Shown piece by piece: positions 283 to 10,432 of a stretch of DNA of 10,432 bases. Numbering within the stretch: position 1 is the stretch's first letter; each line of letters begins with the position of its first letter. The translations under genes and the position numbers were made by a program. The stretch lies in NCBI GenBank assembly GCA_003695725.1, contig RFHX01000008.1, forward strand, positions 1-10,432, given 5' to 3'. The notes under the pieces were generated by a model. It was not told the DNA's origin, did no database searches, and was given only the letters and a program-made list of their open reading frames with translations. The DNA comes from J061 sp003695725 [NCBI: Candidatus Schekmanbacteria bacterium] (GTDB lineage Bacteria; Schekmanbacteria; GWA2-38-11).

Positions 283-2235
283 ATGGCTGGAAAAGGAATT
301 GAAAAAAGAGGCGGATTTGTCGGGAAAATTTTGAGGGTTAATCTTACGACTTCTGAAATATGTGAAGATGAGCTTTCAGACGATTTGAAAAGCCAATACA
401 TTGGTGGTGCAGGAATAAATGCAAAGCTGCTCTTTGATAATCTAAGAGAAAAGATGGAAATAAATCCGCTTTCTCCTGATAATCCCCTTATCTTTGGGGC
501 AGGTCCACTTGTGGGCACAAAGTTTCCTTGTGCAACGAGATATACTGTTACTTCGAAAAGTCCTCTTACGGGCCTTTTTGGTGATTCCAATGCAGGAGGC
601 CACTTTGGCGTAAAGATGAAACAGGCCGGCTTCGACCACATCATAATAGAAGGAAAAGCGGAGTTTCCATCTCTTCTTTTGATTGAAAAGGGCAAAAAAC
701 CCCAAATCATAGAAGTTCACGACATTTGGGGAATGGATACATATGAAACAGATGAATATATTGAGAAGAGATTTGGCAGTGATTTCGAGTCGGCAAGGAT
801 AGGTCCTGCCGGAGAAAATCTAGTTAGATATGCGAGTATCTTTTCTGGACGGAAAAGAGTCAGTGCCAATGGGCGTGCAGGAATGGGTTGTGTTATGGGC
901 AGTAAGAAACTTAAAGCAGTGTTGGTTAAGGGAGACGGAATTATCCCTTCTGCCGATGAAGTAAAATTTGATTCACTTGTTAGAGAATATTCAAAACTTT
1001 GGAGTGAAAGTCCTGCAGTTGCCGCAAATTCTGAATATGGGACATTGATACTAATTGCACAACTTGGCACTGAAGTAGCTAAAAAAAATGACCAAGGAAG
1101 GATTTCGGAAGAAGAGCTTTCAAAGTATGATATAACCGAGTTTGCTGAAAAATATAAAGCGGGCAAATCAAGCTGTTTTTTCTGTCCTGTCGGATGCTCT
1201 CAAAAATGGAAAGTCAATGAGGGGAAATACAGAGGCGAAGAAGGTGATAAGATAGAATTTGGGCATTATGTAAATCTTGGACCGCTTCTCGATATTTATG
1301 ATTTTCCAACTCTTTTCCATTTAGCCAATTTGACAAATCGAATGGGATTGGATGTAACGCAGTTTGGATGGAATCTTGCTATGGCAATGGAGTGCTATCA
1401 ACGAGGAATTATAGGACAAGAGGATACGGGCGGTTTTCACTTGAATTGGGGTGATGCTGATTTGGTCGAAGATATGATTATGAAAGTTTCAAAAAGGGAG
1501 GGATTTGGAAACCTCCTTGCTGAGAGCATTCCTGAAATAATAAGGCAGCTTGGCTCAAGAACTTCTCCTTATGGTTTCCATACTAAGGGAATGACATTTC
1601 CATACAACCGCAAACAAGTCCTTCCAATGGGATTGGCTTCCTCGGTAGCAACAAGGGGGGCAGACCATATGAAGGGACATCCATATTCAGCGCTGGTGGG
1701 GGCAAAGGATATGCTTGCCCGCATATTTGGTAAAGATTCTCCAGAAGAGATTGCGAATCCTCTTAGTCCTGTTGCAAAGGGAAGAGTAGTTTGGTGGCAT
1801 GAGAATTTCAAAATGGCGATAGATTCTTTAGGGTTATGCTTTATCCCCGTTGCGGCAACAAACATCTTTGGCAATCCCCTCATTCTATTCAATGAACTTT
1901 ATGAAATCTATGAAGCGGCGACAGGAGTCAAGGACATAAATCTTTTTCATTCGGCTGAAAGGGCTTACCAATTGGAAAAGGGCTTCAACTGCCTGTTAGG
2001 AATAAAAAGAGATGATGATATGAGAAAGGGGACGACACGAGGGGAAGAAGACCCAATAGAACATCCCGGAATGCTTGACGAATACTATTTTTATAGAGGA
2101 TATTCCAAAGAGGGACTGCCTTGCAGGAAAAGGTTGGAAGAGATTGGGTTTGGTGAATTGATGGAGCTCCTTGAAGAAAACGGCAAGCTTGTAGAAGATG
2201 ATGTTTTCTCAATAAAGGATTTTGTCTCAAAATAA
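283..2235 (+). CDS. AOR-family tungsten (molybdopterin) oxidoreductase, BamB-like size
   Basis: This is a 650-residue member of the aldehyde:ferredoxin oxidoreductase family, enzymes that carry a W- or Mo-bis-pyranopterin and one [4Fe-4S] cluster. The N-terminal AOR domain runs from about residue 12 to 215 and ends in GRAGMGCVMGSKKLKAV from residue 197. The cluster ligands are C298, C301 and C305 (CFFCPVGC) plus C519 in DSLGLC. RGADH lies at 458-462. There is no signal peptide or membrane segment, so it is cytoplasmic. ATG 283 is the first start after an in-frame TGA at 271; its ribosome site is poor. Classical AORs are near 600 residues. The extra length and the Hdr neighbours recall BamB, the catalytic subunit of class II benzoyl-CoA reductase, but aldehyde or other acyl-CoA substrates remain possible. 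The family is secure, the substrate is not. Confidence 0.93.
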   Translation: MAGKGIEKRGGFVGKILRVNLTTSEICEDELSDDLKSQYIGGAGINAKLLFDNLREKMEINPLSPDNPLIFGAGPLVGTKFPCATRYTVTSKSPLTGLFGDSNAGGHFGVKMKQAGFDHIIIEGKAEFPSLLLIEKGKKPQIIEVHDIWGMDTYETDEYIEKRFGSDFESARIGPAGENLVRYASIFSGRKRVSANGRAGMGCVMGSKKLKAVLVKGDGIIPSADEVKFDSLVREYSKLWSESPAVAANSEYGTLILIAQLGTEVAKKNDQGRISEEELSKYDITEFAEKYKAGKSSCFFCPVGCSQKWKVNEGKYRGEEGDKIEFGHYVNLGPLLDIYDFPTLFHLANLTNRMGLDVTQFGWNLAMAMECYQRGIIGQEDTGGFHLNWGDADLVEDMIMKVSKREGFGNLLAESIPEIIRQLGSRTSPYGFHTKGMTFPYNRKQVLPMGLASSVATRGADHMKGHPYSALVGAKDMLARIFGKDSPEEIANPLSPVAKGRVVWWHENFKMAIDSLGLCFIPVAATNIFGNPLILFNELYEIYEAATGVKDINLFHSAERAYQLEKGFNCLLGIKRDDDMRKGTTRGEEDPIEHPGMLDEYYFYRGYSKEGLPCRKRLEEIGFGELMELLEENGKLVEDDVFSIKDFVSK

Positions 2236-2361: not shown

Positions 2362-2931
2362 ATGGAAATAAAATTTGATGAGTTGGACCCTCAATTTAAA
2401 TATGAGGTTGCCAAAAGGCCCGGCGGTGAAAAAATAAAAAATTGTTATTCCTGTGGAACCTGTTCAGCAAGCTGTCCGGTAAGGAAAATCGATGAGCGTT
2501 TCAATCCACGCCAAATTATCAGAATGGCTCTTCTGGGATTAAAGGAAGCAGTTTACAAAAGTGACTTCGTTTGGCTATGCACTGCCTGTTACAGTTGTCA
2601 GGAAAAATGTCCTCAAGGTGTGAAAATTACAGATTTGATGACTGTTTTCAAAAATCTTGCAACTGAAGAAGGTTATGTTCATCATTCATATGTGCAAATT
2701 GGTGAATTTATCAAAGGCAGTGGAAGAGTTTATGAGCTTGAAGAGTTTGACAACAAGAAAAGAGAAAAGGCAGGACTTCCAAAGCTTCCTCTAAAAATTG
2801 GAGAAGTAGAAAAGATTTTTGAGATTACGGGATTTAGTAAAATTTTGGAAGAGAGTAAAAAAGAAGAAATCAAAGAGACAGCCAGCGATTCTGCGGATGT
2901 CTCTGAAAATCAGACAGGAGAAGGACAGTGA
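2362..2931 (+). CDS. hdrC: HdrC-like two-[4Fe-4S] electron-transfer subunit
   Basis: This is a 189-residue soluble iron-sulfur protein of the heterodisulfide reductase subunit C type. Two cluster motifs are intact: C28-C31-C34-C38 (CYSCGTCSASCP) and C73-C76-C79-C83 (CTACYSCQEKCP). The spacing and the length, close to HdrC of methanogens, support the call. In HdrABC complexes HdrC carries electrons between the HdrA flavoprotein and the HdrB active site, which suits its position just before the HdrB gene. It also resembles BamC, the partner of BamB, but I see two clusters here rather than the three I recall for BamC. The last 30 residues are a charged, Glu/Lys-rich tail with no visible domain. 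There is no membrane segment, so it is not the HdrDE or QmoC type. Its stop codon overlaps the next start by 4 bases. Confidence 0.92.
   Translation: MEIKFDELDPQFKYEVAKRPGGEKIKNCYSCGTCSASCPVRKIDERFNPRQIIRMALLGLKEAVYKSDFVWLCTACYSCQEKCPQGVKITDLMTVFKNLATEEGYVHHSYVQIGEFIKGSGRVYELEEFDNKKREKAGLPKLPLKIGEVEKIFEITGFSKILEESKKEEIKETASDSADVSENQTGEGQ
2916..2920 (+). promoter_or_regulatory. Ribosome binding site supporting a GTG start
   Basis: AGGAG lies 7 bases before GTG 2928, inside the end of the HdrC-like gene. It supports the GTG start that overlaps the HdrC stop as GTGA. Confidence 0.75.
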
Positions 2932-3812
2932 AATTAGGACTTTTTTTGGGATGTACGATACCTGCAAGAGTGAGGCAGTATGAAATATCTACACGAAGAA
3001 TAGCAAAGGAGCTTGGCATAGAATTTGTAGATGTTGAAGACTTTTCTTGTTGTGGATTCCCTTTGAAGGCGGCGAATTATGAAACAGCAATGCTTCTTGC
3101 TGCGCGAAATTTAAGTTTGGCTGAAGAAAAGGGGATAACTGAATTATGCACTATGTGCAGTGCTTGCACTGAAAACCTGACTGAGTTTGCAAATGAAATG
3201 AATGAGGATGAGGAATTGAGGGGAAGAGTGAACAAAAAACTTGAAGCAATAGGGAAGAAATACAATGGCACGGTGAAGGTTAGACATATATGCAGAATTT
3301 TAATCGATGAAATAGGTGTCGAGAAGCTTCAAGAAAAAGTCGTAAGACCTCTTGACAAGCTGAATGTTACCGCACATTTTGGATGCCACTATGTAAGACC
3401 ATCAGCTATATATAACCGTTTTGATGACCCTGAGATGCCTTCATCGTTAAAAGAGTTGATTAAGGCAACAGGAGCAAATTATGTTGAGCATAGTAATGAA
3501 ATGCAATGCTGCGGAGGAGGCATACTTGCAGTAGCAGAAAAAGTTTCTCTTGCCCTTTCAAAGGAGAAGTTAGACCGAATGAAAAAGGCAGGTGCAGACA
3601 TTGTTTGTTTGATATGCCCATTCTGCGGTGTTATGTATGACGCCAATCAGCGTTCCATAGAGGAAGAGTTTCAGACGGAATATAAGATGCCTGTTCTCTT
3701 CTATCCCCAACTGTTAGGCCTTGCAATGGGTTTGCCTTCAAAGGAATTAGGCCTAAATCTAAATGTTGTTAAGACAAAAGAACTTGTCAAATCCTTAGAG
3801 GCAGCAAGTTAG
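2928..3812 (+). CDS. hdrB: HdrB-like subunit with two CCG cysteine domains
   Basis: This is a 294-residue protein with two complete CCG (Cys-Cys-Gly) domains, the hallmark of heterodisulfide reductase subunit B. Domain 1 has C9, C41-C42, C77 and C80; domain 2 has C153, C194-C195, C230 and C233. In methanogen HdrB each set binds a non-cubane [4Fe-4S] cluster that cleaves the CoM-S-S-CoB disulfide, so both clusters are probably built here. Length and spacing match HdrB closely. It has no membrane segment. The GTG start at 2928 has a good ribosome site and overlaps the HdrC stop by 4 bases, so the two are translationally coupled and likely form an HdrBC pair. The natural substrate in this organism is unknown: it could be a bacterial disulfide, or the clusters could simply relay electrons to the AOR-family protein. 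An extra cysteine, C74, makes CTMC with C77. Confidence 0.93.
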   Translation: MKLGLFLGCTIPARVRQYEISTRRIAKELGIEFVDVEDFSCCGFPLKAANYETAMLLAARNLSLAEEKGITELCTMCSACTENLTEFANEMNEDEELRGRVNKKLEAIGKKYNGTVKVRHICRILIDEIGVEKLQEKVVRPLDKLNVTAHFGCHYVRPSAIYNRFDDPEMPSSLKELIKATGANYVEHSNEMQCCGGGILAVAEKVSLALSKEKLDRMKKAGADIVCLICPFCGVMYDANQRSIEEEFQTEYKMPVLFYPQLLGLAMGLPSKELGLNLNVVKTKELVKSLEAAS

Positions 3813-3831: not shown

Positions 3832-5091
3832 TTGAATTTTGATGTTGTTATTATAGGCGGTGGTGTAGCAGGTATTTCAGCAGCTTTGCAGATATCTCAG
3901 GAGGGCTATTCATATGCCTTGATAGAAAAGAGTTTCTTTCTTGGTGGGAAAAGCTTGCAGTTGTGCTGTAAAGCCTCTGACCGCTGCAACAAATGTGGTG
4001 CCTGTACGGCTGACCATAAGATTAGAGAAATCTTCAAGGAATCTTACAATTCATTTTTCATGGGTTCTTTTGTAAACAGAGCTGAAGAAAGAGATGGGAA
4101 CTTTATATTAAATGTAAAAAGGATGCCCAGCGGCATTTTATCAGAAAATTGTACAAAATGCGGAAAATGTGTTGAAGTATGCCCTGTAGAGGGAAAAGCA
4201 GTTAATTTTCCTCCTTTTAGTTCCTTCCCTCAAATTCCTTTTATAGATAAGGAAAAATGCCTTCGTTCATTCGGCAACGAGTGTAGTAAATGTGCCGATG
4301 CCTGTAAATATGCTGCAATCGATTATTCCCAAAAGGAAGAAGAAACTGAGATAAATGCTAAAACAGTAGTAATTGCCGTTGGTCTTGAACATTTTGACCC
4401 TTCCCAGAAATCATCATATCACTACGGAATTTTCAAGAACATTATTAGTGGTCAAGAGCTCGAAGAAAAAATCAGAAAGGAAGGAGTAATCGTTCGTCCT
4501 TCAGACGGAGAGCATCCTTCATCGATTGCTTTTATACAATGTGCAGGAAGCAGAGACCCAAAAAATGCAAATCCTTACTGTTCACAGATTTGCTGTTTAT
4601 TTGCTATGAGAAGCTCTTTGCACATTAAAGAGGACTTGCCCGATACCAGAATCAAAATATTCTATATGGATTTGCAGGCGGACTGTAAAGAGGAAATGGA
4701 AATTGTTGAGCGGTGTAAAAAATCAATAGAGTTTGAAAGGTCAATGCCCGGCGTTATCGTTGAGAAAGAAGATGGAAGAATTGGGCTGACCTATGAATCT
4801 CTTGAAAAGGGGAAAAATATTGAAGAAGATTTTGACCTTGTCGTGCTTTCGACAGGTATAGCGCCTTCTTCGTCAAATAGAGAAATTGCAGAATTGTTTG
4901 GATTAGAGATAGATGAAGCAGGTTTTATTAAGAAACTTTCACCAATTGACAAAACAAGGACAAAGAATGAAAAAATTTTTATTGCTGGCGGCTGTGAAGG
5001 ACCAAAGAATGCAGTTTCAAGCATTATGCAGGGAATTGCCGCAGGGAGAAATGCAGTAACAGCGATAAAAAGGGAGAATAAGGTTGCCTGA
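3832..5091 (+). CDS. HdrA/QmoA-like FAD and iron-sulfur protein, 419 aa
   Basis: This is a short HdrA-type flavoprotein. An FAD-binding Rossmann motif (GGGVAG, residues 9-14) starts almost at the N-terminus, so the usual HdrA N-terminal domain is absent. A cysteine cluster follows at C45, C46, C52, C55 and C58. An inserted ferredoxin domain has one regular set, C107-C110-C113-C117, and one irregular set, C143-x7-C151-x2-C154-x3-C158. The conserved HdrA signature QCAGSRD with C237, C250, C254 and C255 lies in the second half, and a final FAD-contact segment (IFIAGGCEGPKNAVSSIMQG) is near 382-401. The C-terminal ferredoxin domain of full HdrA is missing. Size and layout resemble QmoA and, as I recall it, BamE. 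It probably passes electrons between HdrC/HdrB and the 563-aa partner. It starts at TTG, 19 bases after the HdrB gene, and overlaps the next gene by 8 bases. Confidence 0.88.
   Translation: MNFDVVIIGGGVAGISAALQISQEGYSYALIEKSFFLGGKSLQLCCKASDRCNKCGACTADHKIREIFKESYNSFFMGSFVNRAEERDGNFILNVKRMPSGILSENCTKCGKCVEVCPVEGKAVNFPPFSSFPQIPFIDKEKCLRSFGNECSKCADACKYAAIDYSQKEEETEINAKTVVIAVGLEHFDPSQKSSYHYGIFKNIISGQELEEKIRKEGVIVRPSDGEHPSSIAFIQCAGSRDPKNANPYCSQICCLFAMRSSLHIKEDLPDTRIKIFYMDLQADCKEEMEIVERCKKSIEFERSMPGVIVEKEDGRIGLTYESLEKGKNIEEDFDLVVLSTGIAPSSSNREIAELFGLEIDEAGFIKKLSPIDKTRTKNEKIFIAGGCEGPKNAVSSIMQGIAAGRNAVTAIKRENKVA
5071..5076 (+). promoter_or_regulatory. Ribosome binding site for a TTG start
   Basis: AGGGAG ends 7 bases before TTG 5084, inside the end of the preceding gene. 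It supports the TTG start despite the 8-base overlap. Confidence 0.65.
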
Positions 5092-6775
5092 AAACAAAGA
5101 TACAGGAATCGTATTTATAAGAAGCTCAATAAATGAAGCGAGCTTTTTACCCTTCGAGGATAAAGTATTAAAGGCATTATCTGATTACTGCGACAAAAAA
5201 TCATATTTATGTCTGTCAATAGGACGAAATGATTTTTCCGAAGAAAAGCAGAAAACCATTGCTGACTGGTTTTCGAAAAACGCTCTTTCATCTGCTCTTT
5301 TCATAGATTTTTCGGGTGAATACACAAAAGAAAGAATAATCAAGAGCATTCTATCCGAGGTAGTAATACCTGAAAGAATAATGCTTTTAAATTTTTCAGA
5401 AAGAATTAGGAATACTAATGATGACAATGAAGCGCAGGCAGTTATAGATGAAGCTAAAAGAAATATCGATACTTTTCATAAGAGGTATTCGTTAGGGAAA
5501 AAACTTGATTATTCCCCATTTAATCCAAAGAAAAGAGTTGTCGTGGTTGGCGGTGGAATTGCCGGGATTGAATGTGCCATAAAATTGGCTGAAGAAGGAT
5601 TCGGTGCAGCTATTGTGGAAAGAGAAGAATCTCTTGGAGGAGTTTTAAGAAAGGTACCTGCCTTCTATAATAGCGATATATTGCCATCTGATTTTCTCGA
5701 AGAAAAAATAAAAACCTTAGAATCATTACCTAATATCGATGTATTGTTGAATGGGCAAATCGAATCGATTAAAGGCGAAGCAGGAGATATGAAGGTAAGC
5801 TTTGAAAATGGTGAAGAAAGAAAAGAGATCGACTGTGGGGCTGTAGTTATAGCGGGCGGAGTATGGACAGGAATTTCTGCAGATATTAAAAGGACTATTC
5901 CTGATGATGAAAGAATAATTAGTTTGTCTGATTTTTGTGAGAAAAGAGATGAAATTATCGAAAAAATAAAATCTTCTGCAGACGGGAAAGCTATTCTTTT
6001 TGCCGGAAATTATTCAAAAACCTATTCGCCTGTTTTATTTTCATCTCTCCTTTTCAATGCTCTGAAACTGTATGAAGAAACGAATCTGCCTGTGGCTGTA
6101 GCAATTGCAAATGCAGAAGTTGCGAGAGAGGGTGCTGAAGAGCTTTATACTGAAGTAAGAGAAAAGGGGATTACTCTTTTCAAGACTTTGGAGAAAATGC
6201 CTGAAATTTTCATAAAGGACGGCGACCTTTATTCTGCAATTGATGACATATACCTAAAAGGTGAAGGTATGAGTGATGTGAGAGTATTGGTCGATTGTGC
6301 CTTAATAGTGATAGAGGATTCAGTTGAGAGAAACTTTACACTTGAGGCTGTTGCAGAAAAGATACGGATGAAAACAGGTCCAAGGGCAAGTATTCAGCCG
6401 GAAAACTTAAATCTTCTTGCTGTTGATACAAATAAGAATGGGATATTTGTCTGCGGCTCATGCAGACAGGTTTCTGACATATCAGAAATAGAAAGGGATG
6501 CCGAGAATGTAGTTGCTTCTATTAAAAGAACTTTAGATGAAAACTTGAAATATCCTTCAGAAAAAATAATAGTTGATAAAGGTAAATGCACTTTGTGCCT
6601 TACTTGTGTGAGAGTTTGTCCTCACGGGGCAATTGAGTGGAGCAGGGCGGCGGAAATTTCGCAGATCAATTGTCTGGGTTGCGGCACCTGCACAAGCGAA
6701 TGTCCCAACCGTGCAATAACTCTTTCCTCTTTCAGTGATGAAGAGGTTTATTGTGAACTTGAGGGGCTAATATGA
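5084..6775 (+). CDS. HdrA/QmoB-like FAD protein with C-terminal 2x[4Fe-4S] domain, 563 aa
   Basis: This is a second HdrA-type flavoprotein whose domains complement the 419-aa one. Residues 1-140 look like an HdrA N-terminal domain that has lost its cysteines: where HdrA has CHCG this protein has RSSI, and the other conserved cysteines are also replaced. An FAD-binding motif, GGGIAG, is at 156-161. The HdrA insertion ferredoxin and the CVGSRD cysteine signature are absent. The C-terminal ferredoxin domain has two perfect sets: C502-C505-C508-C512 and C530-C533-C536-C540. With the MvhD-like gene that follows (4-base overlap, ATGA), it has the content of QmoB, which joins an HdrA part to an MvhD part in one chain. 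The likely role is to move electrons between flavin and MvhD or external ferredoxin. The TTG start overlaps the previous gene by 8 bases. Confidence 0.87.
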   Translation: MPENKDTGIVFIRSSINEASFLPFEDKVLKALSDYCDKKSYLCLSIGRNDFSEEKQKTIADWFSKNALSSALFIDFSGEYTKERIIKSILSEVVIPERIMLLNFSERIRNTNDDNEAQAVIDEAKRNIDTFHKRYSLGKKLDYSPFNPKKRVVVVGGGIAGIECAIKLAEEGFGAAIVEREESLGGVLRKVPAFYNSDILPSDFLEEKIKTLESLPNIDVLLNGQIESIKGEAGDMKVSFENGEERKEIDCGAVVIAGGVWTGISADIKRTIPDDERIISLSDFCEKRDEIIEKIKSSADGKAILFAGNYSKTYSPVLFSSLLFNALKLYEETNLPVAVAIANAEVAREGAEELYTEVREKGITLFKTLEKMPEIFIKDGDLYSAIDDIYLKGEGMSDVRVLVDCALIVIEDSVERNFTLEAVAEKIRMKTGPRASIQPENLNLLAVDTNKNGIFVCGSCRQVSDISEIERDAENVVASIKRTLDENLKYPSEKIIVDKGKCTLCLTCVRVCPHGAIEWSRAAEISQINCLGCGTCTSECPNRAITLSSFSDEEVYCELEGLI

Positions 6776-7221
6776 GTGTTGAACAAAAGATTACAGAAGA
6801 AAGAAAGAAGGAGCCGATTGTGGCTTTTTGCTGTAATCATTCCGGATTTGAAGCCTATGAAAGAGCTTGCAGAGAACTTGCTTTTGAAGATTCTGCTCTT
6901 AGGGTTGTAAGAATGCCTTGTTCCGGCAAGGTCGATATACCTCACATCCTTTATGCCTTTGAGAATGGAGCATACGGGGTTTTAGTTTTTGCATGTTATA
7001 AAGATAATTGCAAATATATTCATGGCAATGTGAGGGCTGAAAAAAGAATAGCTGATGTTAAGGGAATTTTACAGGAGATTGGAATTCAACCTGAAAGGGT
7101 AGAATTCAAAGAAGTAGCGTCAAATACTCCTTATAGAATCAAAAATGCAGTTGAGCAAATGAGGGAAAGATTGTCCCAATTGGGCTCTTTAAATCTTGAA
7201 AGAAATAATAACCGCTTATGA
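6772..7221 (+). CDS. mvhD: MvhD-like [2Fe-2S] electron-transfer subunit
   Basis: This is a 149-residue protein of the MvhD/FrhD family, which binds a [2Fe-2S] cluster and links HdrA to its electron donor (a hydrogenase, formate dehydrogenase or NADH module). Family marks are AFCCN at 18-22, MPCSGKVD at 48-55 and the block ACYKDNCKYIHGN around 74-86, giving candidate ligands C20/C21, C50, C75 and C80. The usual CNxC pair near the start is changed to CCNHS, so one conserved cysteine position is a serine. The C-terminal 30 residues are charged and helical-looking. ATG 6772 has GAGG 7 bases upstream and overlaps the preceding stop by 4 bases. In this operon the electron donor would most simply be the NAD(P)H module of the next gene. 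No in-frame UGA (selenocysteine) is present. Confidence 0.9.
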   Translation: MSVEQKITEERKKEPIVAFCCNHSGFEAYERACRELAFEDSALRVVRMPCSGKVDIPHILYAFENGAYGVLVFACYKDNCKYIHGNVRAEKRIADVKGILQEIGIQPERVEFKEVASNTPYRIKNAVEQMRERLSQLGSLNLERNNNRL

Positions 7222-10200
7222 GTGAAAATGGAAAAAATAGAAAAGTAGGGTCTGTCCTTGTCCTTGGCGGCGGAGTGGCAGGTATGCAGTCAGCTATAGA
7301 TTTGGCGGACTCTGGATACAGAGTTTATCTTGCTGAAAAGACGCCATTTATAGGCGGTAAAATGGCTCAGCTTGATAAGACATTTCCGACGAACGATTGT
7401 GCGATGTGCACAATTTCTCCACGCTTAGTAGGTGTTGGAAGACATCTCAATATAGATATTCTTGCAGGAGTCGAGCTGATTCGGGTTGAGGGCGAAGCAG
7501 GAAATTTCAAAGTATTTCTGAAACAAAATGAGCGGTTAATCGACCCTGCAAAGTGTACTGCCTGCGGCGATTGTAAAAAGGTATGTCCTGTGGAAGTTGA
7601 AAGCGAATTTGACCTTGGACTTTCAAAGAGAAATGCAATTTATAAAAGCTATTCACAGGCAGTGCCAAATGCCTATGCCATTGACAAGCGTGGATTGTCT
7701 GCCTGTAAAATTTCCTGTCCTGCAGGAATCAGTGTGCAGGGGTATATTGCCCTTATTGCAAAGGGAAAATATAAGGAAGCATACAATCTTATAATGAAAA
7801 ATAATCCTCTTCCCGGAGTGTGCGGAAGAATGTGCCATCATCCCTGCGAATCAGAATGTCGCAGAGGGCTTGTCGATGAAGCTATTTCGATCAGGAATTT
7901 ACGGCGCTTCTTGGCAGACAAAATTTATGGAGACCCGGATTTTACTCCTCCTCAGGCAGTTGAGAAAAAGCATCCTGAAAAGATTGCCATAATTGGCGCT
8001 GGACCCTCAGGACTATCCTGTGCCTACTATCTTGCACTTGAAGGATACAATGTTGAGATATTTGAGGCTTTGCCCGTCAAGGGAGGAATGCTTGCAGTGG
8101 GAATTCCTGAATATCGGGTGCCGGCAAAATCATTGGCCATAGAGATTTCAAATATAGAGGCATTGGGGGTCAAAATTCATACGAATACCAGAATTGGTAA
8201 GGATATTGCTTTTTCAAAATTGAAAGAGGATTTCGATGTTGTCTATATTGCAACAGGAGCGCATCTTGCAAACAAACTAAACATACCGGGCTCTGACAAT
8301 GAGAATGTAATAGATGGTGTAGAATTTTTGAGAAAGGTTAGCCTTGGTGAGGAGGTTAAAAAAGGTAAAAAGGCGGTAGTCATAGGTGGTGGTAATGTTG
8401 CTTTGGATGTTGCAAGGACAGCCCTTCGCTTGGGATATGATGTTTCTCTTATGTGCCTTGAAAACGAGGAGGAAATCCCCTGTCATCCATGGGAGCTTGA
8501 AGAGGCGATTGAAGAAGGAGTTAAAGTAAATTATTCACTTGGACCAAAAGAAATAGTCGTTAAAGATGGAAAGATTGAAGGTGTCAGAACCATAAAGGTA
8601 AAATCGGTTTTTGACAGCGAAGGGAAATTCAATCCGCAGTTTTATGAAGGTACAGAAGGATTATTGAAAGGTGATACGGTTTTTTTGGCAATTGGTCAAA
8701 GGCCTGATTTGAGTTTTCTCGACTGTGATTTAGAGACGCAGCAGGGAAATAGAATCAAGGTTGACCCATCTCTTCTCCGCACTAGTGATGGCAAAATATA
8801 TGCCGGAGGCGATGTTGTGAGGGGTCCTGCTTCTGCTATTGAGGCGATTGCCGATGGCAGAAGAGCAGCGATGGTGATTGACAGCAAACTGAGAAACAAG
8901 CCGATTCCAGAGGATGTAAGACCTGAACCGACAGAACCTGAGATTGAAGGCAAAAGGATAAAGAAAGAATGGAAAAAGGTTCCGCCTAAACTTTCTCCTG
9001 AAGAGAGAATAAAGGATTTCAGCGAAATCGAGAAACCTTTTTCTGAAGAGGATGCTCTTGCTGAGGCATTGAGATGCCTTCACTGTTCAGTTTGTTCTGA
9101 CTGCAGACTTTGTGAAGAAGCTTGTGAAGCAAAAGCTATAAGCCATGAACAGCCCATTCAAACTGTCAAACAGCTTGATGTAGGAGCTATTATTCTTGCG
9201 CCGGGATTTGAATATTATGATGTTGATCTCAAAGAGGAATTTGGCCATAGGAGGTTTAGCAATGTCCTTTCCAGTTTAGAATTTGAGAGGATTTTGAGCG
9301 CAGGTGGTCCCTTTATGGGAGAGATTAAACGGCTTTCAGACGGAAAACCTCCAAAAAAGATAGCATGGATTCAATGTGTCGGTTCAAGGGATGAAGAAAG
9401 GGATTATTGTTCATCGGTTTGCTGTATGTATGCAACCAAGCAGGCGCGTCTTGTGAAAGAGCATCTTCCTGATGCTGAATGTACTATATTTTTTATTGAT
9501 TTACGGGCTTTTGGGAAAGGTTTCGATGATTATTGCAAAAGGGCTGAAGCTCTTGGAGTAAGATATGTTAGATGCAGACCTTCCAATGTCAAAGAAGACC
9601 CTTTAACCCAAAATCTTCTTTTTCAATATATTACGCCTGAAGGCAAGCCCATAACCGAAGAATTCGATATGGTCGTTCTTTCTGGCGGACTTGGTATCGG
9701 TAAAGAACAAAAGGAAGTGGCAGAAACCCTTGGAATTGAACTCAATGAATTCAATTTTTGTAAAACAGGGAAATGGGATCCTTTATATACTAACAGGGAG
9801 GGGATTTATACCTGTGGTGCTTTTACAGAACCGAAAGATATTCCTGAATCCGTCACTCAGGCAAGTGGAGCGGCTGCTTTGGCTATAGAGCAGTTAAGTG
9901 ATGTGCGCAATACATGTACGAGAAAAAAGGAATATCCTGAAGAAAGAGATGTTTCCAAAGAAGAGCCAAGAGTTGGAGTTTTTGTCTGTAGATGTGGAAC
10001 CAATATTGGGGGAGTAATTGAGGTTCCTTCTGTTGTTGAATATGTGAAACAATTACCCAATGTGGTCTTTGCAGAAGAGAATATGTATACCTGTGCCGCT
10101 GACAGTCTTGAAAAAATAAAGGAGATGATAAAAGAACATAATCTCAATCGTGTTGTAGTTACTTCATGCACGCCCCGCACTCACGAGCCGCTTTTCCAAG

Positions 10201-10432
10201 AAGCATTGCGGGAAGCAGGACTCAATCCATATCTTTTTGAAATGGCTAATATTCGTGACCAATGCACATGGGTGCATGCAAATACTCCTGATAAAGCCCT
10301 GAATAAAGCTAAAACTCTTGCGCAAATGGCTGTAATGAGAGCAAGGAAACTCAATCCCTTATATAATCAGGATATAGATATTTGTCGTGATGTCCTTGTA
10401 ATAGGAGGAGGCATTGCCGGTATGACTTCGGC
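7218..10432 (+). CDS. Giant HdrA-GltD-HdrA fusion flavoprotein, C-terminus beyond the window
   Basis: The frame is open from ATG 7218 to the last base: 1071 codons, no stop. Domains in order: HdrA FAD motif GGGVAG (17-22) and the HdrA signature KMAQLDKTFPTNDCAMC (48-64); ferredoxin C113-C116-C119-C123; at about residue 158 a GltD-type module begins, with N-terminal cysteines C163, C167, C202, C206, C210 and C214, FAD motif GAGPSG (260-265), nucleotide motif GGGNVALDVA (390-399) and FAD segment GGDVV (530-534); a linker; a cysteine block from C620 to C636; resumed HdrA with CVGSRD and C720, C731, C735, C736; then from about 916 a second HdrA N-terminal domain (CRCGTN at 924-929) and a new FAD motif GGGIAG (1063-1068). 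It is probably the NAD(P)H port and bifurcating core of the complex. It overlaps the MvhD stop by 4 bases, with only a weak ribosome site, so coupling is likely. Confidence 0.92.
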   Translation, partial: MSENGKNRKVGSVLVLGGGVAGMQSAIDLADSGYRVYLAEKTPFIGGKMAQLDKTFPTNDCAMCTISPRLVGVGRHLNIDILAGVELIRVEGEAGNFKVFLKQNERLIDPAKCTACGDCKKVCPVEVESEFDLGLSKRNAIYKSYSQAVPNAYAIDKRGLSACKISCPAGISVQGYIALIAKGKYKEAYNLIMKNNPLPGVCGRMCHHPCESECRRGLVDEAISIRNLRRFLADKIYGDPDFTPPQAVEKKHPEKIAIIGAGPSGLSCAYYLALEGYNVEIFEALPVKGGMLAVGIPEYRVPAKSLAIEISNIEALGVKIHTNTRIGKDIAFSKLKEDFDVVYIATGAHLANKLNIPGSDNENVIDGVEFLRKVSLGEEVKKGKKAVVIGGGNVALDVARTALRLGYDVSLMCLENEEEIPCHPWELEEAIEEGVKVNYSLGPKEIVVKDGKIEGVRTIKVKSVFDSEGKFNPQFYEGTEGLLKGDTVFLAIGQRPDLSFLDCDLETQQGNRIKVDPSLLRTSDGKIYAGGDVVRGPASAIEAIADGRRAAMVIDSKLRNKPIPEDVRPEPTEPEIEGKRIKKEWKKVPPKLSPEERIKDFSEIEKPFSEEDALAEALRCLHCSVCSDCRLCEEACEAKAISHEQPIQTVKQLDVGAIILAPGFEYYDVDLKEEFGHRRFSNVLSSLEFERILSAGGPFMGEIKRLSDGKPPKKIAWIQCVGSRDEERDYCSSVCCMYATKQARLVKEHLPDAECTIFFIDLRAFGKGFDDYCKRAEALGVRYVRCRPSNVKEDPLTQNLLFQYITPEGKPITEEFDMVVLSGGLGIGKEQKEVAETLGIELNEFNFCKTGKWDPLYTNREGIYTCGAFTEPKDIPESVTQASGAAALAIEQLSDVRNTCTRKKEYPEERDVSKEEPRVGVFVCRCGTNIGGVIEVPSVVEYVKQLPNVVFAEENMYTCAADSLEKIKEMIKEHNLNRVVVTSCTPRTHEPLFQEALREAGLNPYLFEMANIRDQCTWVHANTPDKALNKAKTLAQMAVMRARKLNPLYNQDIDICRDVLVIGGGIAGMTS

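What the first reader, a model, noticed from the sequence alone, without database searches (positions are those of the whole stretch)
7218..10432. HdrA split by a complete GltD-like oxidoreductase and fused to a second HdrA
Seen: HdrA sequence is normal up to the first ferredoxin and the following segment (FDLGLSKRNAIY, QAVPNAYAIDK), then the second ferredoxin position is taken over by the GltD cysteine domain CPAGISVQGYIALI. HdrA resumes after about residue 640 and a second HdrA starts near 916. Three FAD sites are already visible (17-22, 260-265, 1063-1068). A chain with two bifurcation-type HdrA flavins and an NAD(P)H flavin is unusual and suggests electron confurcation within one polypeptide.
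Basis: partly seen in the sequence, partly recalled or inferred. Interest (0 to 1): 0.75.

Follow-up and report, generated by a model that had tools for sequence, protein, structure and literature searches.

The report
NADH-wired double HdrA (HdrL-type) subunit
This is a real giant electron-handling protein in which an NAD(P)H-oxidising domain sits inside one of two fused heterodisulfide-reductase A units; it is a new member of a kind already known from the acetogen Moorella and probably from Desulfobacterium, so it is informative rather than unprecedented.

Summary
Window 7218-10432 starts an hdrA-type gene whose first HdrA unit is split by a complete GltD module (aa ~159-623) and which runs on into a second HdrA (from aa ~916). 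It is not an assembly fault: the contig ends inside the gene, but two relatives (76% and 66% identical) carry it as one 1492- and 1496-aa open frame, and 72 full-length frames of the same order lie in 66 of 80 fetched loci. The missing end lies on contig C166, followed by MvhD, HdrC and HdrB. One detail is wrong: GltD does not replace the second ferredoxin. It is inserted between the two ferredoxin motifs, and both are kept. The module has the circularly permuted GltD order seen in StnC/NfnABC, so its ends should meet at its iron-sulfur cysteines. The same domain order is published for HdrA of Moorella thermoacetica (1487 aa, NADH-oxidising). Most likely function: NADH enters at the GltD FAD and passes through Fe-S clusters to HdrA flavins that can bifurcate, serving HdrBC and MvhD partners. 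Direction and second acceptor are unknown. Noted here: a nine-gene operon with two Hdr sets, and Arg in place of the StnC-type Lys cluster ligand. Interest modest.

The parts
7218..10432 (+). HdrL/Moorella-type double HdrA with GltD insert; 1071 aa to the contig end; continues on G000:C166 bases 1-1185 after an unread gap of about 36-38 aa
7218..7691 (+). HdrA unit 1, first part (aa 1-158): FAD motif aa 17-22, NDC61AMC64 (C64 = Cys197 of 5odc), first half of inserted ferredoxin
7554..7586 (+). ferredoxin motif I C113 C116 C119 C123 (72 of 72)
7692..9086 (+). GltD module (aa ~159-623): C163 C167 C206 C210 C214 C620 C623 (72 of 72), C202 (67 of 72), FAD motif aa 260-265, NAD(P) motif GGGNVA 390-395
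8976..9092 (+). permuted segment (aa 587-625) matching the N-terminus (aa 8-47) of canonical Nfn-L; modest scores (E 0.0005-0.001 as a 52-aa query)
9087..9908 (+). HdrA unit 1, second part (aa 624-897): ferredoxin motif II C626 C629 C632 C636 (nt 9093-9125), E690, cluster C720 C731 C735 C736, K741
9963..10367 (+). HdrA unit 2 N-terminal cluster domain (aa 916-1050): C924 C926 C959 C984 (72 of 72)
   Evidence: (via L009)
10380..10430 (+). start of HdrA unit 2 thioredoxin-reductase-like FAD domain (GGGIAG aa 1063-1068), cut by contig end
6772..7221 (+). MvhD/FlpD-type protein of the upstream Hdr set
5084..6775 (+). HdrA/QmoB-like protein (563 aa), partner 2 of a split HdrA pair; its N-domain has lost the cluster cysteines (by eye)
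3832..5091 (+). HdrA/QmoA-like protein (419 aa), partner 1 of the split pair; Arg at the Lys409 position (by eye)
2928..3812 (+). HdrB-like (two CCG stretches)
2362..2931 (+). HdrC-like ferredoxin
283..2235 (+). aldehyde:ferredoxin oxidoreductase-type enzyme next to the operon; not found beside it in G001 or G002; association uncertain

Best explanation
The gene encodes a Moorella-type HdrA (also called HdrL): two complementary HdrA halves fused into one chain, the first carrying a circularly permuted GltD module inside its inserted ferredoxin domain. NADH is oxidised at the GltD FAD. Electrons leave singly through the two GltD [4Fe-4S] clusters and the two adjoining HdrA1 ferredoxin clusters to the HdrA1 FAD. 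HdrA1 and HdrA2 act as an internal pseudo-dimer: the HdrA2 N-domain cluster is probably completed by C64 of HdrA1 and leads to HdrC/HdrB, while the HdrA2 C-terminal ferredoxin serves MvhD and its partner. Both HdrA flavins keep the bifurcation-type Glu/Lys pair, so the complex probably bi- or confurcates between NAD(H), an HdrB-side acceptor and an MvhD-side carrier. Shown here: domain order, cysteine conservation, insertion point, permuted order, flavin residues, operon. Inferred: NADH rather than NADPH, electron path, pseudo-dimer. Unknown: direction, second acceptor, partner enzyme in this organism.
For: Same domain order published for Moorella thermoacetica HdrA: 1487 aa, N-terminal TrxR and Fd interrupted by GltD, 3 FAD, 1 NAD(P)H site, E/K in both TrxR domains (PMC9430772 section 5), with NADH:benzyl viologen activity (passage). 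The matching features of the window protein. The model (mean pLDDT 87, pTM 0.81) matches 5odc 137-568 over 426 residues with model aa 4-896 (Z 49.9, rmsd 2.1) and 9bov 99-687 over 471 residues with aa 158-636 (Z 50.1, rmsd 1.9), so the HdrA fold closes round an intact GltD module. NADH: the YRR of 9bov, 9n5u, 8oh5 and 5jca is CLE here (E415); E in 49 of 72 relatives, R in 23. StnC is described as NADPH-binding at this domain. GltD flavin as electron entry: position 229 is R here and K in 70 of 72, aligned with StnC K170, not with NfnB Glu. Complementary halves: C64 72 of 72 in HdrA1, which has no N-domain; in L009, HdrA2 has the N-domain but neither Cys197 nor an inserted ferredoxin; PMC9012536 notes the same complementarity in the Moorella protein. 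MvhD-HdrC-HdrB follow in G000:C166, G001 and G002. MetV- and/or MetF-type genes near HdrL in 49 of 80 loci.
Against: The NAD(P) Rossmann motif is GxGxxA (A395, 72 of 72), which PMC12054007 takes as NADP-type, against the NADH reading from E415. In this clade metVF is not in the cluster; in this genome it lies on C132. In S. ovata no co-reduction of NAD(P)+ or ferredoxin by the related (GltD-less) complex was seen, and the enriched Moorella complex did not couple NADH to methylene-THF (passages). My cysteine count suggests about nine [4Fe-4S] clusters, whereas eight are published for the Moorella protein. No coordinates were available, so cluster distances and the C64 bridge were not measured. 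The E356 equivalence in HdrA2 is provisional, and 9 of 72 HdrA2 units lack the K. Moorella HdrA itself was not aligned here.
Confidence: 0.75

Rival explanations
1. The GltD flavin is itself a bifurcating flavin, as in NfnB, giving two kinds of bifurcation site in one chain (suggested for archaeal HdrA9-11).
For: 45% identity of the ANME-1 insert to NfnB and the suggestion of two bifurcation sites (PMC9012536). R300 aligns with the Arg of the YRLP/FRLP/YRLD stretch of the Nfn and Stn chains, 72 of 72.
Against: The NfnB Glu at the cluster-ligand position is Arg here and Lys in 70 of 72 relatives, as in StnC, whose FAD is reported as non-bifurcating. No NfnA-like protein is among the neighbours annotated (not searched for elsewhere).
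Confidence: 0.1
2. The protein is a plain NAD(P)H-to-HdrBC electron conduit and does not bifurcate or confurcate.
For: The related S. ovata system showed no co-reduction. Non-bifurcating HdrA relatives exist, and the neighbouring split pair here has Arg for the Lys (3 of 3 genomes, by eye).
Against: E/K kept in HdrA1 in 72 of 72 and in HdrA2 in 65 and 63 of 72.
Confidence: 0.2
3. Confurcation within one polypeptide, as the first reader proposed (electrons from two donors combined to make NAD(P)H).
For: Three flavins in one chain; confurcation has been proposed for HdrA/NfnB fusions in ANME-1, there with NADPH as one of the donors (PMC9012536).
Against: Direction cannot be read from sequence. 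Moorella HdrA was assayed as an NADH oxidase and its complex is proposed to bifurcate.
Confidence: 0.25
4. Assembly artefact joining separate genes.
For: The gene is cut by a contig end and its tail lies on another contig.
Against: Uninterrupted 1492- and 1496-aa frames in two other assemblies and 72 full-length frames of the same order.
Confidence: 0.01
5. The module uses NADPH, not NADH.
For: GxGxxA motif; YRR-type sequences in 18 of 72 relatives.
Against: CLE with E415 in this protein and CLE in G001 and G002 in place of the YRR of the solved Nfn/Stn chains.
Confidence: 0.25

Closest known systems
HdrA of Moorella thermoacetica MetFV-HdrABC-MvhD (type IV methylene-THF reductase; PMC9430772, PMC8760232)
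   Same: Domain order: TrxR and Fd interrupted by GltD, then a second HdrA with TrxR and C-terminal Fd and no inserted Fd; length about 1490 aa; E/K in both TrxR domains; MvhD and HdrBC partners
   Different: Here the gene is not beside metVF and lies behind a second, degenerate Hdr set. The two sequences were not aligned here
HdrL1-3 of Desulfobacterium autotrophicum HRM2 (PMC2702500)
   Same: Hdr/glutamate-synthase fusion colocalised with MvhD, proposed to take electrons from NADH
   Different: HdrL1 and HdrL3 contain selenocysteine, and HdrL1 sits beside dsrABC; exact domain order not seen by me
Type III HdrA (HdrA9/10/11) of ANME-1 and Bathyarchaeota (PMC9012536, PMC12054007)
   Same: About 500-aa GltD/NfnB insertion in the inserted ferredoxin domain
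   Different: HdrA lengths in that archaeal survey run only to 1182 aa, below the ~1490 aa of the fused kind
StnC of Sporomusa and the large subunit of NfnABC (8oh5, 9bov, 9n5u)
   Same: Same permuted GltD order, 36-41% identical; StnC-type basic residue at the proximal cluster
   Different: StnC joins the module to a NuoG-like domain, not to HdrA

Membership tests
Moorella-type HdrA / HdrL | GltD module inserted in the ferredoxin domain of an N-terminal HdrA | tested here: met
Moorella-type HdrA / HdrL | C-terminal HdrA with N-domain, TrxR and C-terminal ferredoxin, without inserted ferredoxin | tested here: met
   window aa 916-1071 plus C166 1-1185 (short stretch between unread); complete in G001 and G002
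Moorella-type HdrA / HdrL | Bifurcation-type Glu and Lys in both TrxR domains | tested here: met
   E690, K741; E84, K126 of the C166 frame; the HdrA2 Glu mapping is provisional
Moorella-type HdrA / HdrL | MvhD and HdrBC encoded next to it | tested here: met
Moorella-type HdrA / HdrL | Direct alignment with M. thermoacetica HdrA or HdrL1-3 | not tested
   those sequences were not fetched
Moorella-type HdrA / HdrL | NADH:viologen oxidoreductase activity | not testable with these tools
   needs protein
Type IV methylene-THF reductase cluster | metV and metF in the same cluster | tested here: not met
   not among the genes of C8 and C166 annotated; family matches lie at G000:C132, G001:C1 and C3 (217 kb, away from the operon at 545 kb) and G002:C15, not at the operons
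Type III HdrA | GltD insertion in the inserted ferredoxin | tested here: met
Type III HdrA | GXGXXG nucleotide motif reported for archaeal type III | tested here: not met
   GGGNVA; A395 in 72 of 72
Type II HdrA | Two TrxR domains in one chain | tested here: met
NfnB-type bifurcating GltD flavoprotein | Glu ligand at the proximal cluster | tested here: not met
   R229 aligned with E of 5jca and K170 of StnC
Class II benzoyl-CoA reductase (Bam) complex | BamB-type catalytic subunit beside the Hdr genes | tested here: inconclusive
   the adjacent AOR is nearest 1aor (E 2e-79); BamB 4z3w is the weakest of nine matches (E 8e-41); no tree was made

The most novel reading that the evidence does not exclude
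In this bacterial order the NADH-wired double HdrA works in a nine-gene supercomplex with a second Hdr set (HdrC-HdrB-HdrA-HdrA-MvhD) that has lost its own bifurcation Lys. Electrons would then be split once at HdrL and merely conducted by the other set to a different HdrBC, possibly with an aldehyde oxidoreductase as a partner in this genome, and the GltD proximal cluster would be ligated by arginine.
Probability: 0.15. Interest if true: 0.55.

Novelty: new member of a known kind. Interest (0 to 1): 0.3.

Why it matters
The physiological electron acceptors of the Moorella-type HdrA complexes are an open question in acetogen energy conservation (passages of PMC8760232 and PMC9430772). The 80 loci carry the labels of twelve phyla. 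The protein comes with an E-type or an R-type NAD(P) site, and with metVF-type, hydrogenase-type, Flx-like or no recognised extra partner nearby, so the acceptor question can be tested by comparing natural variants. The permuted GltD order offers an explanation of how a 465-aa enzyme can sit inside a small ferredoxin fold without breaking it.

Tried and rejected
Assembly fusion: rejected by intact frames in G001, G002 and 72 relatives. GltD replacing the second ferredoxin: rejected, since both motifs are kept. Class II benzoyl-CoA reductase: I tested whether the neighbouring AOR is BamB-like; it is nearer to aldehyde oxidoreductases. No AOR match was found in the G001 and G002 stretches (about 6.5 and 5 kb upstream; E 1e-10) or in the 80 relative loci (blastp E 1e-12 on frames of 80 aa or more; many of these contigs are short). 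A lipoate link: GcvH, LplA, LipS2 and LipS1 lie downstream on C166, but no match to them was found in the G001 stretch (about 12 kb downstream) or in the G002 stretch (only about 2.5 kb downstream), so it was not pursued. I expected the GltD-less double HdrA to be ancestral. In the quick tree 20 of 21 of them form one branch (100) nested in a 63-row branch (99) with 43 GltD-bearing rows, and the 21st (L099, a long branch) falls among other GltD-bearing rows; this would suggest loss of GltD in tandem duplicates. It is not settled, because the drawing root is a midpoint, long branches meet, and the loci were gathered with this query. The last paper search, for a published note of the GltD permutation, was too broad to answer: 616 papers held two of the four terms and only 10 were listed. 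The Stn paper has no word beginning 'permut' in its main text. No claim is made that the permutation or the nine-gene operon is unpublished. Mock et al. 2014 is not held, so Moorella activity is taken from other papers. Papers: section 5 and passages of PMC9430772; abstract, section 5 and passages of PMC12054007; passages only of PMC2702500, PMC9012536, PMC8760232, PMC10482914, PMC12142623, PMC5736913, PMC13328260, PMC13101534, PMC5861303, PMC6405883, PMC6085437, PMC7325909 and PMC11237513 (for several also the start of the abstract in search listings). Rows dropped: conservation counts use the 72 full-length frames only; 14 further GltD-bearing double HdrA frames, cut or incomplete, were left out.
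Full report
What is there. The window is the whole contig C8 of its genome. The frame from 7218 runs off its end at 1071 aa. Its order is: HdrA thioredoxin-reductase-like FAD domain and first ferredoxin motif (aa 1-158), GltD module (~159-623), second ferredoxin motif and rest of that HdrA unit (~624-897), then the N-terminal cluster domain (916-1050) and the FAD motif (1063-1068) of a second HdrA. The continuation is on contig C166: its first frame (bases 1-1185) aligns with aa 1138-1503 of the TA06 homologue L009 at 53% and with aa 1115-1488 of the G001 homologue at 71%, while the window part covers G001 aa 3-1076 at 76%, leaving about 36-38 aa unread.

Not an artefact. G001 (same family) and G002 (same order) have the gene as one frame of 1492 and 1496 aa. 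All 80 hold a GltD-bearing double HdrA: 72 full-length frames in 66 loci with the order A1N-GltD-A1C-A2N-A2T-CFd, and 14 frames that are cut or incomplete; 20 further double HdrA frames, 19 of them in Chloroflexota, lack GltD. Being the best matches, these loci are not a random sample. By their labels they are 43 Chloroflexota, 12 Planctomycetota, 7 Thermodesulfobacteriota, 5 Myxococcota, 3 Armatimonadota, 2 Actinomycetota, one each of six further phyla (one archaeal, Thermoplasmatota), and 2 unplaced. Of 60 genomes searched around this one (G000 included), only G000, G001 and G002 gave a match over nearly the whole query.

Correction of the finding. The inserted ferredoxin of HdrA is not replaced. 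5odc residues 146-291 match aa 13-158 and 8rvv 288-557 match the part from aa ~624 on, so GltD sits between the two CxxCxxCxxxC motifs. C113, C116, C119, C123, C626, C629, C632 and C636 are each Cys in 72 of 72 full-length relatives.

How the insertion is possible. aa ~162-558 match residues 51-470 of Nfn-L (5jca), but aa ~588-625 match its residues 10-47, that is, its N-terminus. The second match is modest: E 0.0005 (5vj7), 0.0009 (5jca), 0.003 (4ylf), 0.005 (7mfm) and 0.025 (6s6s) for a 52-aa query, and only E 0.2 for dihydropyrimidine dehydrogenase; it carries the conserved RCLxC cysteines. The module therefore appears circularly permuted relative to Nfn-L and GltD, and has the order of StnC and NfnABC chains (8oh5, 9bov, 9n5u). 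Its first cysteines (C163, C167) and last cysteines (C620, C623; all 72 of 72) correspond to neighbouring positions in canonical GltD, so both ends should meet at its clusters next to the HdrA ferredoxin (inference). AlphaFold2 on a 43-row alignment gave mean pLDDT 87 and pTM 0.81. VIA-align matched the model to 5odc over 426 residues (model aa 4-896, chain 137-568, Z 49.9, rmsd 2.1) and to 9bov over 471 residues (model aa 158-636, Z 50.1, rmsd 1.9).

Flavins and cofactor. HdrA1 keeps E690 and K741, the equivalents of E356 and K409, in 72 of 72; HdrA2 keeps them in 65 and 63 of 72, with the Glu mapping provisional. In the GltD module the residue aligned with StnC K170 and NfnB Glu is R229; it is Lys in 70 of 72 relatives, Arg in one and Gly in one, and Arg also in G001 and G002. 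StnC is reported not to bifurcate at this flavin, and its K170R variant kept about half its activity (passages of PMC10482914). The GltD flavin is therefore read as an electron entry, not a bifurcation site. At the NAD(P) site the YRR of solved Nfn/Stn chains is CLE here; E is found in 49 and R in 23 of 72. E is more frequent near metVF (41 of 53 frames) than elsewhere (8 of 19), a count not corrected for kinship. Against NADH stands the GxGxxA motif (72 of 72), which PMC12054007 takes as NADP-type.

Pseudo-dimer. In methanogen HdrA one ligand of the N-domain cluster, Cys197, comes from the other subunit (PMC9012536). Here HdrA1 has that Cys (C64, 72 of 72) and no N-domain. In L009, HdrA2 has the N-domain but no such Cys and no inserted ferredoxin. 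A DCxxC pattern occurs once in 67 and twice in 5 of 72 proteins. PMC9012536 describes such complementarity for HdrA3/4 in the opposite order, and also for the Moorella protein; that the halves pair within the chain is inference.

Operon. In G001 and G002 the order is HdrC-HdrB-HdrA(A1-like)-HdrA(A2-like)-MvhD-HdrL-MvhD-HdrC-HdrB; C8 plus C166 show the same genes. Read by eye from the sequences: the upstream A1-like protein has Arg at the K409 position in all three genomes; the A2-like protein lacks the CxxxCC stretch in all three; its N-domain has lost the cluster cysteines here, is absent from the G001 frame and keeps cysteines in G002. In many Chloroflexota loci a fused, GltD-less double HdrA with MvhD stands upstream of HdrL instead. 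Of 80 loci, 49 carry matches to MetV and/or MetF (Pfam PF12225 and PF02219 proteins of L019; the gene names are mine), 4 carry MvhA and MvhG matches, and 4 carry Flx-like genes (my label, from Pfam domains; two of these also MetVF); 25 have none of these named partners, though many contigs are short. In G000 one metVF pair lies on C132, away from this operon. The AOR gene stands beside the operon here; no AOR match was found in the G001 and G002 stretches or in the 80 loci.

Known or new. PMC9430772 section 5 describes M. thermoacetica HdrA with this same domain order, and a passage gives its NADH:benzyl viologen activity as 190 U/mg. PMC2702500 named Hdr/glutamate-synthase fusions HdrL in 2009 (passages), and PMC12142623 likens a protein of strain AMeS2 to them. 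The architecture is thus known, and the window adds a member from a lineage with a two-set operon. Whether that operon has been described was not searched for specifically.

Evolution, tentatively. In a quick tree of HdrA1 cores (115 rows) 20 of 21 GltD-less double HdrAs form one branch nested among GltD-bearing rows, the other one falls elsewhere among GltD-bearing rows, and two single HdrAs with GltD form their own branch. The root is a midpoint and long branches meet, so loss of GltD after tandem duplication is only a lead.

Noticed in passing
L089 (G000:C166) 5242-8626: Downstream of the operon: GcvH-type lipoyl protein, LplA-type ligase, LipS2 and LipS1 (partial) lipoyl synthases. Hdr-lipoyl partnerships are known in sulfur oxidisers (recalled), but no such genes were matched in the G001 stretch or the shorter G002 stretch.
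   Followed up: partly
window 283-2235: AOR-type enzyme directly upstream of the Hdr operon, not found beside it in G001 or G002; nearest solved relative 1aor.
   Followed up: partly
MvhD genes in relatives, e.g. L036 and L065: 33 of 91 MvhD matches contain an in-frame TGA, 31 times at the position of C85 of the C166 MvhD: likely selenocysteine.
   Followed up: partly
window 5084-6775 and L105 9368-10627: The HdrA A2-like N-domain seems to be decaying: cysteines kept in G002, lost here, domain absent from the G001 frame (by eye).
   Followed up: no
L096 1033-4476, L097 1054-4449: Single HdrA with N-domain, GltD insert and C-terminal ferredoxin but no second HdrA (type III-like) in two distant genomes of the same domain.
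   Followed up: partly
L100 1396-4830: Degenerate GltD-HdrA fusion in which the second part of HdrA unit 1 was not matched; the stretch also contains masked bases.
   Followed up: no
L089 3138-3488: DUF3088 protein (CPDC motif by eye) just after hdrB on C166.
   Followed up: no
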